Source of the DNA: Acidobacteriota bacterium
Lineage (GTDB): Bacteria > Acidobacteriota > Blastocatellia > HR10
NCBI GenBank assembly: GCA_030550025.1
Contig: JAUQQC010000004.1
Coordinates: forward strand, 238,401 to 302,400
Length of the DNA: 64,000 nucleotides
Direction: 5' to 3'
Shown here: positions 58,820-63,999 of the stretch, piece after piece
Numbering within the stretch: the first letter of the stretch is position 1
Layout of the letters: each line of letters opens with the position of its first letter
Notes under the pieces: generated by a model
Told to the model about the DNA's origin: nothing
The model's database searches: none
The model's input: the letters and a program-made list of their open reading frames with translations, nothing else
Translations under genes and position numbers: made by a program

Positions 58820-61600
58820 TCAAGCCGATTGGATGCTCGCGAGGATAGATTCCTTCAATCGCCGTGGGTCTCTACACACGCAAAACGCCCAGCGCCCGAA
58901 CTCCCCATGGCGATTGACTGCCCGCACCCAGCGTCGGGCCGCGATCTCCTTCTGCCGATCCTGCTCGCTCTCCAGGCCTTTTACTTCCAGGACGACCTCA
59001 ACCTCCGTGCCGTCCGGCATTCGCCAGCGGATAAGGTAGTCCGGGCGATACTCATGCCGCGCCCCTTGCCATTCGTAGGGGATGGTGAAGTCCAGATGGT
59101 CATTGCGGGCATAGGCGATCGCTTCGGGCATCTGCTCAAGTTCATAGGCGACGGTGTGCTCCCATTTGGGGGCGTCCAGGACAACATGGCTGATATGGCT
59201 TTTCGTGGTCCCCACCGCCGGGCGCACAGTGCGAAAGAGCACTTCAGCGGTAGAGCCAAGAGGACGAAAACGCTCGATGACGGGGAGAAGCGGCGGCTCT
59301 CCGGCTTGGGTATCCGGCTCAATCGCCTCGGCCAACCGCTCAATGATGCGCTGTTTGTATTTGAGCAAGGCAATTTCTTCGAGGGGGGTATCGCCATCCG
59401 CTATGATGACACGTTCTTCCAAATACTGCCAGACGATGTTCAGCACCTGCGGGAACAGGATGTGCCGGGCGTTCCAGTCGTCCCGCTTGTCTTTGAGACG
59501 GCGGGTCAACTCAGCGGCGATCTCATAGACGGTAGCCTGCAACCGCTTTTCGCGATGGAATGGGTTACGGTCATGTAAGACTTCAGGGCCTGGCCCGACA
59601 CGGTCAGGGCGTCTGATGCGATAGCCCACCGCCGGCTTGGCAACTACTTCCGTCGGTTCCTCGAGAGGGTTAATCGTCAGGTAAGGCACCTTCTCAAGGT
59701 CCACACGAATCCGCTGGTGCACATCCAACACATAGCCTTCCACCCGCGGAAAGGTAATTTCCAAATGCTTGCGTTCAGGCAAGGCACGCACGAGCGTAGA
59801 GACCTTCTGCACCTCCGCGCGTCCGAGGGGCTTTTTCTTGACGGGGATGACCTCGAACGGCACGCCGTAGACGTCCACATATTCGGGCTCGGAGAAGTCG
59901 TCATAGTTCATACGCCGCAAGCCCCGTCCCACCACCTGCTCACACAAGAGCTGCGAGGTGAACGCTCGCAAGCCCAGAATCTGCGTCACATTTTGCGCAT
60001 CCCAGCCCTCGTTGAGCATCCCAACGGAGACCACACAGCGAATGTTCTTCCCCGGCGGATCGCCCTCGCCCTCCCACTCCGTCTTGCCGATGGTATCCAC
60101 CGTCTTGCGCAATCGCTCCGCCGCTTCCTGTTTCGTTTCCCCTTCTACTGCACTTTCCGCCTCGGCCAGGAGTTTCGTGTCAATGCGAAAGGTAACTTCC
60201 ACGCCCTCACGATTTTCCAGGTCGGCCAACACATTCCCACGAGCAACGTGTTCATGCACCAACCTGGCCAGGTCAGTGTTGTCGCAGACGACGATCATCA
60301 CAGGTGGTACCGGCGAGCCAGCCTTCTGGAAGGCTTCAAAGGTCTTCCTCCATTCCGAAGCCAGGGTCACCAGGGCTCCCTCAGCCTCTCGCAGGACCGA
60401 TTCCGGCTTGGCGCGGCGGCGAGCCCTCTGCCGTTCCGAAGCCGGAAGCCGCGAGTTGACCCATTCCCAAAGGCGGAAATAGGCGGGTATGAGCGCGCCT
60501 GTGTTGTCATCCACCGGAACCCGAGGGATTTTCACAATGCCCGATTCAATGGCATCGATCAAGCCAAAATCCGAAACGACCCACGGGAAAGGGGTCCCCT
60601 CTTCATAGCCGCTGCCCTTGATGTAGAACGGCGTCGCAGAGAAGTCGGCGCAGAAGTTGATACCGCGCACGGCGTTGATTTTGTCCAAACCGCTGATCCA
60701 GACAGTCGCCTCCTCCCGCTCCGCGACCTCCTCCGCTGAGAGCTGGCTTCGTAGTTCCTCCGGCAAGGGGGCCGGCCGGTAGGCGTGATGGGCCTCATCG
60801 TTGATGACCAGGATGTTCTGCTTGGTGCCCAACTCCTTCAGCACGCGTCGGCAAAACGCCGTGTCGCTTTCCACCCCGCGTTGCACCACGCTTTTCGAGC
60901 GGCTGTCGTCTTTGGGTTGAAGGAGGTGCCAGTTGGTAATTTCAAACTTCCCCCGTTGCAGACGTTCCAGCACCCCGCGCGGCACCAGGTCAAACTTGTC
61001 GTAATAGTTGCCCGGCTTCCAGGGCAGAAGCACCTGCAAGCGCTCTTTGATGGTGAGATTGGGGCAGACAATCAGCACTGCATCGGAAAAGCGCCGATCC
61101 TGAGGGTTCGCGATCTTATTCAGCACCTGCCAGGCAATGACCATGCCCATGACGACCGTCTTGCCCGAACCAGTAGCCATCTTGCAGGCATAGCGCGTCA
61201 AGCCGTTGTCCTTGGGAATGTCGATGCCTTGCTTTTCCGCCGGCAAGGCTTCCACCAGCCAAATGAGCGTTTCGGCGGCTTCGTGCTGACAGAAGAACAG
61301 TTTGCGTTCGCGTTCAGGATGGTTCCAGTGATTGAGCAGTTGCCGGGTGATGGGGGTGACGCCCGGATAGCCCCGCTCCCGCCAGGCTTTGACCCGTTCG
61401 CGGATGGTATTGACCAGCTCCAGAGGGACAAACTCCTCCTCCAGCAGCGCCGTCTGCGGCCCACGGGTACGCGCCTTCAGGTAATAGCCCGCCTGACGCC
61501 GTCCTTCTTTCAGGACGGGCTGTCCGTCTTCATATGCCCAGTAACGGGTGGGTTCCTCAAAGGGTGAGTTGACGATGGGGTTGTCAACGAGGAGGGACAT
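58820..61600 (-). CDS. type III-like restriction endonuclease subunit / DEAD-family helicase (Res)
   Basis: ATGSGKTVVMGMVIAW, VINDEAHHAYRP, ADFSATPF, VSVGMLNEGWDAQNVTQILGLRAFTSQLLCEQVVGRGLRRMNY; C-terminal PD-(D/E)xK-like DFTIPYEWQGARHEYRPDYLIRW..VVLEVKG. Confidence 0.9.
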   Translation of the reverse strand: MSLLVDNPIVNSPFEEPTRYWAYEDGQPVLKEGRRQAGYYLKARTRGPQTALLEEEFVPLELVNTIRERVKAWRERGYPGVTPITRQLLNHWNHPERERKLFFCQHEAAETLIWLVEALPAEKQGIDIPKDNGLTRYACKMATGSGKTVVMGMVIAWQVLNKIANPQDRRFSDAVLIVCPNLTIKERLQVLLPWKPGNYYDKFDLVPRGVLERLQRGKFEITNWHLLQPKDDSRSKSVVQRGVESDTAFCRRVLKELGTKQNILVINDEAHHAYRPAPLPEELRSQLSAEEVAEREEATVWISGLDKINAVRGINFCADFSATPFYIKGSGYEEGTPFPWVVSDFGLIDAIESGIVKIPRVPVDDNTGALIPAYFRLWEWVNSRLPASERQRARRRAKPESVLREAEGALVTLASEWRKTFEAFQKAGSPVPPVMIVVCDNTDLARLVHEHVARGNVLADLENREGVEVTFRIDTKLLAEAESAVEGETKQEAAERLRKTVDTIGKTEWEGEGDPPGKNIRCVVSVGMLNEGWDAQNVTQILGLRAFTSQLLCEQVVGRGLRRMNYDDFSEPEYVDVYGVPFEVIPVKKKPLGRAEVQKVSTLVRALPERKHLEITFPRVEGYVLDVHQRIRVDLEKVPYLTINPLEEPTEVVAKPAVGYRIRRPDRVGPGPEVLHDRNPFHREKRLQATVYEIAAELTRRLKDKRDDWNARHILFPQVLNIVWQYLEERVIIADGDTPLEEIALLKYKQRIIERLAEAIEPDTQAGEPPLLPVIERFRPLGSTAEVLFRTVRPAVGTTKSHISHVVLDAPKWEHTVAYELEQMPEAIAYARNDHLDFTIPYEWQGARHEYRPDYLIRWRMPDGTEVEVVLEVKGLESEQDRQKEIAARRWVRAVNRHGEFGRWAFCVCRDPRRLKESILASIQSA

Positions 61601-61606
61601 GTTGTA

Positions 61607-62549: not shown

Positions 62550-63290
62550 CTATTTCACCTCCTGGAAGAGTTCCCTTAAGCGATCCGTAATGCATCCTTC
62601 AAAGATCTGCTCTATCTCATTATGGGCCTGTTCCACCCATTCTGCAACTTCTTCTGGCTTTATTCCTTTAGGTTGAGCTAGGAAATAGTCAATGTCCAAG
62701 GTGAAGGCAGGTCGCTCAGAAGAGCTTGAGGGAGTGGTTATAAGTTGGACTCTGCACAAATCCCGGTCATGGGCATACCGGAACTCACATCCGACTATGA
62801 AGTTCACCATAACCTGAGGAAGCTCGGGACCAAGGAACAAGTAAAACTGGAAGTAGTCCTCCAGTTTTATCTGCGAACTCGGTATCTCAATTAGGTTGAT
62901 ATACCGCAGGCCAACTCTTTGCAAACCCTTAACATCGGTGGTGTCCATTAAGGCTTCAAAAGCCTTTACGATTTTCGGCTTGAATCCTGCCCATGTTGGG
63001 TAAGGCGCCAAACAGTTGATCGCCAAAAGCCGAGGACCTATTTGCACAAAGGTCTTCCTGTCCTCCATGAGAAATACGATGCGCTCGCTAGTGCGGATTT
63101 GTCGCTGAAGGCCATCCGGTCCTTGGATCAACTCGATCTCTTGAAATAAACGCTGTTCCCGGCGAGGGAATTCGTCTTTGAGTTTCTCGTAAACCAGGCC
63201 AGGAATGGTCATATCCCATTGGGTGTCTGGTGTGAAGCGAAATTCACAAACAGCCTCGACGAGAGGGGGATTGGCGTATTTTCTACCCAT
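62550..63290 (-). CDS. TIGR04255-like family protein
   Basis: YANPPLVEAVCEFRFTPDTQWD N-terminus and RVGLRYINLIEIP, as in TIGR04255 proteins. Confidence 0.75.
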   Translation of the reverse strand: MGRKYANPPLVEAVCEFRFTPDTQWDMTIPGLVYEKLKDEFPRREQRLFQEIELIQGPDGLQRQIRTSERIVFLMEDRKTFVQIGPRLLAINCLAPYPTWAGFKPKIVKAFEALMDTTDVKGLQRVGLRYINLIEIPSSQIKLEDYFQFYLFLGPELPQVMVNFIVGCEFRYAHDRDLCRVQLITTPSSSSERPAFTLDIDYFLAQPKGIKPEEVAEWVEQAHNEIEQIFEGCITDRLRELFQEVK

Positions 63291-63999
63291 AATGATCCTC
63301 CTTTGCGTTCAACTTTACCACCCGCACCACCTCATTCCCGCGAAAATCAATGACCTTGACGGCGATGCGCTTGTGCTCGCCGGGCTCGAACGGGAACGAG
63401 ACGGTGCCACGCATCTGTTCAAAAGCCTCAGGATCAATTTGCGCCTTGAGGGCGCGCTGCAGTTTCTCCCATGCATCAGGATCGCCGGGGAAGAAGGCCT
63501 GACAGATGTGGAAGGTCATGCCGTCGTAGTCGGTATCCAAAAACCAGGCAGCGACGTCGCTGCCGCGCGTATGCTGGGTTTCGCCTTTCAGCGGGTCATA
63601 GATGTCCACCCCGCGCAGTTCCACGATATATGTGCCATCTTTCTGAGGTGTCACCTTCACATCGGGCTGGCCAAAGACGGTGAAGATTTGGCTGGCGCGG
63701 GTGGTCTTGAGCAAATCACCCACGAGCACATCGGGGGCGATGTTGGCAAAATGAATCTGCATGCCTGCCACAGGCGCCTTCTGAATAAGCGCCTGTGCTT
63801 CGGGGTCGAAACTGAAACCCGCAAAGATGAGCACCTCATAGCCGTTCATCTTGGCGGTCGGGATGGCTTCTTTCACCTGAAACGCTGTCACCGGGCCATA
63901 CTGCGGCCCGAAGCTCAGCGCGACTCGGACGGTCTTGCCGTTCTGCACCGTCTCCGCTTCGGCGTGGAGATAGCCGATATGGAGCGGGTGCAGGTTTTG
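63283..63999 (-). CDS. C-terminal part of a probable site-specific DNA-methyltransferase (Mod), truncated by window edge
   Basis: Frame open to the edge (QNLHPLHIGYLHAEAETVQNGKTVRVALSFGPQYGPVTAFQVKEAI...); same strand and immediately upstream of the island leading to Res. Confidence 0.6.
   Translation of the reverse strand, partial: QNLHPLHIGYLHAEAETVQNGKTVRVALSFGPQYGPVTAFQVKEAIPTAKMNGYEVLIFAGFSFDPEAQALIQKAPVAGMQIHFANIAPDVLVGDLLKTTRASQIFTVFGQPDVKVTPQKDGTYIVELRGVDIYDPLKGETQHTRGSDVAAWFLDTDYDGMTFHICQAFFPGDPDAWEKLQRALKAQIDPEAFEQMRGTVSFPFEPGEHKRIAVKVIDFRGNEVVRVVKLNAKEDHYG

What the first reader, a model, noticed from the sequence alone, without database searches (positions are those of the whole stretch)
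58820..63999. Type III-like restriction island with HEPN-like, unknown and TIGR04255-like genes inserted between Mod and Res
Seen: Res (58820-61600), a 122-aa HEPN-like protein, a 188-aa unknown and a TIGR04255-like protein, then the C-terminus of a probable methyltransferase running off the window, all on one strand with 1-8 nt gaps or overlaps. Tight coupling suggests the three small genes are part of the system: a candidate RNase (HEPN) with partner proteins, giving a backup abortive response to restriction.
Basis: partly seen in the sequence, partly recalled or inferred. Interest (0 to 1): 0.75.

Follow-up and report, generated by a model that had tools for sequence, protein, structure and literature searches.

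The report
Toxin-like cassette inside restriction operon
Between the two genes of a bacterial DNA-cutting defence system sits a three-gene cassette that looks like a toxin with its control partners; the same five-gene arrangement recurs in two other bacterial families, while close relatives of the system carry different defence or toxin genes at the same spot, so the junction looks like a slot for exchangeable second-line defences.

Summary
Res (58820-61600) is a BPTD_3080-family type III-like restriction enzyme, and the gene running off the contig is the C-terminus of its Mod partner. Between them lie TIGR04255, an unknown 188-aa gene ("U188") and HEPN, with junctions of 1-8 nt.

However, the trio is not a fixed part of the restriction system. 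It also occurs without Mod/Res on a Thermus plasmid, and U188-HEPN pairs occur without TIGR04255.

Relatives of Mod/Res up to 87% identical (Res) carry other cargo at the same junction (PIN toxin-antitoxin pair, GmrSD, PifA, AAA, DUF3800) or none. Two loci with 94-95% identical Mod and Res carry unrelated cargo, and homology breaks at the gene ends. About half of 54 Mod/Res junctions surveyed are filled.

Best reading: a modular HEPN toxin-partner cassette, functionally like PrrC in EcoprrI, parked in a cargo slot and expressed with the restriction operon as a second line of defence. Toxicity, neutralisation and triggering are inferred. I found no published description of the slot or of TIGR04255 cassettes.

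The parts
63283..63999 (-). C-terminal 238 codons of Mod (type III-like N6-adenine methyltransferase); 5' part lost at the contig end
   Evidence: PADLOC MTase_III 2.3e-32; 79-84% identical to Mod C-termini of relatives; contig C3 ends here
62550..63290 (-). TIGR04255 protein, 246 aa, head gene of the cassette; start codon overlaps the Mod stop by 8 nt; predicted fold two beta-alpha-beta4-alpha repeats
   Evidence: TIGR04255 162 bits; AlphaFold pLDDT 87, pTM 0.85; weak TBP-like Foldseek match
61982..62548 (-). U188, 188 aa; variable N-terminus and conserved C-terminal ~120 aa (LEVxxDPExE...Y); partner (putative antitoxin) of HEPN
   Evidence: homologues directly upstream of this HEPN type: pTB1, G051, G235, G088, G318, G340, viral L179/L183
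61607..61975 (-). HEPN-T-like protein, 122 aa, putative toxin; R91-x3-D95-Y96 with invariant H63, no Rx4-6H histidine
   Evidence: profile vs PDB HEPN 9xbd 7e-10, Retron-Kva2 HEPN 2e-4; alignment A5
58820..61600 (-). Res, 926 aa, BPTD_3080-family type III-like restriction endonuclease (helicase + PD-ExK)
   Evidence: NF046055 1021.7 bits
61601..63320 (-). exchangeable cargo slot: from roughly the last 10-14 codons of Mod to the Res start codon
   Evidence: DNA homology to 9 relatives ends 23-43 nt before the Mod stop and, in 8 of 9, resumes within -4..+12 nt of the Res start (T. brockianus L079: 20 nt upstream); no cargo homology

Best explanation
The trio TIGR04255-U188-HEPN is a self-contained toxin-antitoxin-like module that has been captured in a cargo slot between Mod and Res of a BPTD_3080 type III-like restriction operon, and is translated together with it. 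Shown: gene identities, recurrence of the order, independence of the trio, and exchange of cargo at fixed borders. Inferred: HEPN is the toxin, probably attacking RNA. U188, encoded just upstream of it, is its direct neutraliser. TIGR04255 is the sensor or regulator that couples an infection or restriction-failure signal to release of HEPN. Mod and Res form the first line of defence. When phage evades or inhibits them, or the operon is lost or perturbed, the cassette halts the cell, as PrrC does for EcoprrI. The restriction operon also gains an addiction element.
For: Order Mod-TIGR04255-U188-HEPN-Res intact in G318 (L280) and, up to the contig end, in G340 (L281), with window/G318 junctions of the same size for the first three. 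Trio without Mod/Res on pTB1; trio in G235 and G088 and pair U188-HEPN in G051 without Mod/Res beside them. U188 profile finds the gene upstream of other HEPNs (1.7e-19, 1e-16, 1.4e-15, 7e-13) but not the middle genes of other TIGR04255 cassettes (E>1). Near relatives of Mod/Res carry PIN TA, GmrSD, PifA (1.7e-127), PDC-S01-type AAA, DUF3800, GGACT, Y1 transposase or nothing. L039/L041: Mod and Res 94-95% identical, cargo unrelated, borders at the gene ends. Mod and Res distances agree, Mantel r=0.92. GC3 of the trio 0.47-0.59 against 0.71-0.81 for Mod/Res in all three genomes; most other cargo also low. TIGR04255 also heads cassettes with PIN, PemK/MazF and HNH proteins. HEPN-in-R-M precedent: PMC3710099, PMC12707154.
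Against: No toxicity, neutralisation or phage data. The HEPN lacks the canonical catalytic His. The U188 fold is not predicted confidently (pLDDT 57). Passive passenger status is not excluded. Whether the three five-gene copies reflect one insertion or several is unresolved: the cassette is more diverged than Mod/Res, and pTB1 groups inside the slot copies with moderate support.
Confidence: 0.6

Rival explanations
1. The trio is an obligate subunit set of this restriction system: HEPN/U188/TIGR04255 bind Mod-Res and are needed for restriction or are held inactive by the complex itself.
For: Same five-gene order in three families; tight coupling; PrrC precedent, where the R-M complex holds the HEPN nuclease (PMC3710099).
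Against: Mod/Res relatives at 74-87% Res identity lack the trio; the trio exists without Mod/Res; cargo swaps with 95% identical Mod/Res.
Confidence: 0.15
2. The slot only offers a safe, expressed landing place; the cassette is a selfish addiction element with no role in phage defence.
For: Cargo includes a Y1 transposase, VapBC-like pairs and proteins not obviously defensive; foreign composition; TIGR04255 cassettes sit on plasmids and prophage-like contigs.
Against: Several cargoes match known or candidate defence families: PifA, NsnB/HEC-03B, HEC-05, PDC-S01, AriA/OLD-like; repeated retention of the same trio in the same slot in three families.
Confidence: 0.15
3. The HEPN is catalytically dead and the trio is a regulatory or RNA-binding unit controlling Mod/Res expression.
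For: No Rx4-6H histidine; TIGR04255 model has a weak TBP-like match, i.e. a possible nucleic-acid binder.
Against: Invariant R91, D95, Y96 and an N-terminal H63, the pattern that PMC3710099 describes for HEPN-T and AbiV and considers compatible with activity; toxin-type effectors (PIN, PemK) take the same place behind TIGR04255.
Confidence: 0.1

Closest known systems
PrrC anticodon nuclease embedded in the EcoprrI type IC R-M locus
   Same: HEPN protein encoded within an R-M operon; proposed second line when restriction fails (PMC3710099, PMC12707154)
   Different: type I hsd locus; PrrC has an ABC-ATPase half and no U188 or TIGR04255 partner (own knowledge); here type III-like Mod/Res and a small HEPN-T
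BPTD_3080-family type III-like R-M (NF046055) with its Mod
   Same: Res over the family cut-off, Mod partner adjacent
   Different: cargo at the Mod-Res junction; textbook type III loci are plain mod-res (own knowledge)
HEPN-T / PF05168 HEPN proteins, including the PDB entries 9xbd/9xbc
   Same: SRAYYA and R-x3-DY motifs, size, profile match 7e-10
   Different: partner is U188-like, not an MNT nucleotidyltransferase
HEPN-MNT (HepTA) toxin-antitoxin
   Same: small upstream partner coupled to a downstream HEPN
   Different: no MNT; the MNT-paired HEPNs found in the same search are much weaker matches
Tripartite TAC (toxin-antitoxin-SecB-like chaperone) modules
   Same: three genes with exchangeable toxins
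   Different: TIGR04255 model does not match SecB; best matches are TBP, weakly

Membership tests
Type III restriction-modification (Mod/Res) | Res: SF2 helicase plus PD-ExK nuclease | tested here: met
   NF046055 1021.7/800 bits, ResIII 1.4e-10; motifs readable
Type III restriction-modification (Mod/Res) | Mod: N6-adenine methyltransferase next to Res | tested here: inconclusive
   only the C-terminus in this genome; complete orthologues in L034 (PF01555 6e-22) and L280 (962 aa)
Type III restriction-modification (Mod/Res) | asymmetric site, one-strand methylation, two-site cleavage | not testable with these tools
   needs methylome and biochemistry
TIGR04255 | score over the NCBIfam cut-off | tested here: met
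   162.3 against 30 bits
HEPN superfamily (PF05168 / HEPN-T) | profile similarity to HEPN proteins of known structure | tested here: met
   A2 profile vs 9xbd 7e-10, 36ht 2.3e-4; window protein alone below the Pfam cut-off (14.1/22)
HEPN superfamily (PF05168 / HEPN-T) | Rx4-6H catalytic motif | tested here: not met
   R91-x3-D95-Y96 in all 7 aligned; invariant H63 N-terminal to it, as described for HEPN-T
HEPN-MNT toxin-antitoxin | MNT nucleotidyltransferase partner | tested here: not met
   U188 has no Pfam/NCBIfam match
PrrC/EcoprrI | HEPN protein encoded inside an R-M operon | tested here: met
PrrC/EcoprrI | ABC-ATPase domain fused to HEPN; type I hsd genes | tested here: not met
   122-aa single-domain protein; Mod/Res type III-like
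TAC modules | SecB-like chaperone | tested here: not met
   no SecB among the 50 best Foldseek PDB matches
Type II toxin-antitoxin | antitoxin neutralises a toxic partner by binding | not testable with these tools
   only gene order and coupling seen

The most novel reading that the evidence does not exclude
The Mod-Res junction of this R-M family is a dedicated, precisely bordered slot through which bacteria exchange second-line defence and toxin modules under the control of the restriction operon. TIGR04255 is the common head (a double TBP-like fold, possibly a nucleic-acid sensor) of an unrecognised class of three-gene toxin systems whose partner and toxin are interchangeable (HEPN, PIN, PemK/MazF, HNH and unknown types).
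Probability: 0.4. Interest if true: 0.8.

Novelty: new variant of a known kind. Interest (0 to 1): 0.6.

Why it matters
A HEPN suicide gene inside a restriction operon has a precedent (PrrC). A junction at which closely related type III-like systems swap whole defence or toxin modules with fixed borders does not appear in the papers I could search. It gives a simple rule for finding new defence genes: read what lies between Mod and Res. Part of the cargo already matches known or candidate defence families (PifA, NsnB, HEC-05, PDC-S01, AriA-like), so the unmatched cargo is a ready candidate list. It also puts a name (TIGR04255 cassettes) on a widespread and, as far as I could find, unstudied toxin-like gene set.

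Tried and rejected
SecB-like chaperone (TAC) idea for TIGR04255: suggested by the three-gene format, not supported by Foldseek. Classical Rx4-6H HEPN RNase: motif absent. "Order unique to this genome": this looked true after the first scan of near relatives and was overturned by searching the whole class. Completing Mod from the own genome: not in the assembly. HEPN of the window alone in viral contigs: no relative; the alignment found 28. U188 alignment too variable for a pattern search; U188 structure too poor to interpret, so its fold was not searched. Own promoters for the cassette: no clear excess over shuffles. Literature: no paper with TIGR04255, none on genes between mod and res, none on BPTD_3080 or 9xbd. 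The library covers open-access papers only.
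Full report
1. Observation. The five frames exist as described. Res is a BPTD_3080-family restriction endonuclease (NF046055, 1021.7 bits) with helicase and PD-ExK motifs readable in the translation. The frame running off the window is the C-terminus of a type III-like Mod (PADLOC 2.3e-32; 79-84% identical to Mod genes of relatives). The contig itself ends at the window end, and no other piece of Mod is in the assembly. TIGR04255 is certain (162 bits). HEPN is below the Pfam cut-off on its own but clear by profile (7e-10 to PDB 9xbd). 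U188 matches nothing in Pfam, NCBIfam or PADLOC. Junctions are 1-8 nt.

2. What lies at this junction in relatives. A scan of GTDB contigs with Res gave ten loci at 74-87% identity; where both genes are visible, Mod precedes Res. The junction holds, in turn: nothing (L033, L036), a 688-aa unknown (L034), a Y1-type transposase (L035), a GGACT protein (L037), DUF2281+PIN (L038), GmrSD plus 95 aa (L039), an AAA_14/DUF4143 protein (L041) and a PifA homologue next to a Mod remnant (L042). T. brockianus pTbrSNM4-1b has DUF3800. L039 and L041 have 94-95% identical Mod and Res and unrelated cargo; their DNA homology stops about 30 nt before the Mod stop and resumes at the second base of the Res start codon. 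Against the window, nine relatives lose Mod homology 23-43 nt before the stop; in eight of them Res homology resumes within -4 to +12 nt of the start (in L079 20 nt before it), with no hit in between. Mod and Res distance matrices agree (Mantel r=0.92, p=2e-4).

3. Wider survey. Counting all loci in which both ends of the junction could be placed, in either gene order, I find about 26 filled, 27 empty and one unsettled of 54 (some loci are near-duplicates, filled/empty judged from open frames or record annotation). Filled examples include UPF0175+DUF3368 in PCC 7002 pAQ5, AAA_15/OLD-like ATPases, an NsnB-like ATPase in Planktothrix and a PIN protein (L015, by eye). PADLOC matches several cargoes to defence families. 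The window's cassette and most other cargo tested are lower in GC3 than the flanking Mod and Res: 0.48-0.53 against 0.72 in the window; most loci, including pTB1 against its neighbours, follow; L038 does not and L041 only weakly.

4. The same five-gene order elsewhere. A search of 165 genomes of the class with TIGR04255 and ModC found two further loci. G318 (another family of the same order; L280) carries Mod 962 aa, TIGR04255 246, U188 177, HEPN 120 and Res 941, all open. G340 (another family of the class; L281) carries the same order up to the contig end inside Res. Identities to the window: Mod 75/75, TIGR04255 57/57, U188 41/33, HEPN 53/50, Res 81/88%. Window and G318 share the first three junction sizes (8-nt overlap, 1 nt, 6 nt). 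The cassette is more diverged than Mod/Res, and its TIGR04255 tree puts the Mod/Res-free pTB1 copy with G318/G340 (support 92/92, not decisive). One insertion with fast evolution and several insertions both remain open.

5. The cassette without Mod/Res. T. brockianus pTB1 has the complete trio (61/29/46% identity) in a region with VapC, Cas6 and a PAZ-domain Argonaute, and no Mod/Res beside it. G235 and G088 have trios, and G051 and Gloeothece plasmids have U188-like+HEPN pairs without TIGR04255. A profile of U188 proteins finds the gene just upstream of further HEPNs, including two on viral contigs, and rejects the middle genes of other TIGR04255 cassettes. U188-HEPN is therefore the core pair and TIGR04255 a frequent head gene.

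6. TIGR04255 in general. In 33 of 297 genomes of the phylum there is a match; the gene usually heads two further coupled genes. Where families are recognisable the last gene is HEPN, PIN, PemK/MazF or HNH (a HicA-like match is below cut-off); many are unknown. Most of eleven viral contigs show the same format. G286 has Res-Mod-TIGR04255-179 aa-130 aa, a second type of link to BPTD_3080 systems. The AlphaFold model is confident (pLDDT 87, pTM 0.85), two beta-alpha-beta4-alpha halves; Foldseek's best PDB matches are TBP at 6e-4 with low TM-score 0.28, so TBP-like is a lead, not a result.

7. Mechanism. Shown: module independence, recurrence, coupling, exchange at fixed borders. From established knowledge: HEPN proteins in R-M loci act or are proposed as a second line (PrrC; PMC3710099, PMC12707154); HEPN-T proteins lacking the motif His carry a conserved His N-terminal to it (PMC3710099), as here (R91, D95, Y96, H63). 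Inferred: HEPN toxin, U188 neutraliser, TIGR04255 sensor or regulator, release on failure of restriction or loss of the operon.

8. Verdict. Its claim that the genes belong to the restriction system is too strong: they are a module in an exchangeable slot, repeatedly paired with it. New variant of a known kind.

Noticed in passing
L034:3121-6915 and L037:153-4055: The Mod genes of these relatives carry an intein with a DUF559 endonuclease domain at the CGSGTT motif (Pfam on L034: DUF559 1.1e-29, Intein_splicing 4e-5 below cut-off).
   Followed up: partly
L168-L178 (viral contigs): TIGR04255 mostly followed by a ~200-aa and a ~150-aa gene as a uniform three-gene cassette on prophage-like contigs; effectors not identified.
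   Followed up: partly
L138, L139, L140; L144, L149, L157, L136: Two recurring TIGR04255 cassette types with unknown effectors: one with 'WRQGDCV...TQTCD' proteins, one with 'NWDGYGAK' middle proteins.
   Followed up: no
L019, L021, L023, L024 downstream of Res: BPTD_3080 Res is followed not by Mod but by a DUF5131-like protein (by eye), in L019, L021 and L024 preceded by a three-Cys-motif partner-like protein.
   Followed up: no
L213:264-992 and L214:2-721 (L214 in reverse-complement coordinates): HEPN loci of three coupled genes whose head gene is a ~240-aa protein not recognised as TIGR04255.
   Followed up: no
L076 (T. brockianus pTB1): The Mod/Res-free cassette sits in a cluster with VapC, Cas6, a methylase and a PAZ-domain Argonaute.
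   Followed up: no
window 53950-56790 (-): 946-aa frame with a [10 protein letters not shown]-loop next to a mechanosensitive-channel-like gene; not examined.
   Followed up: no
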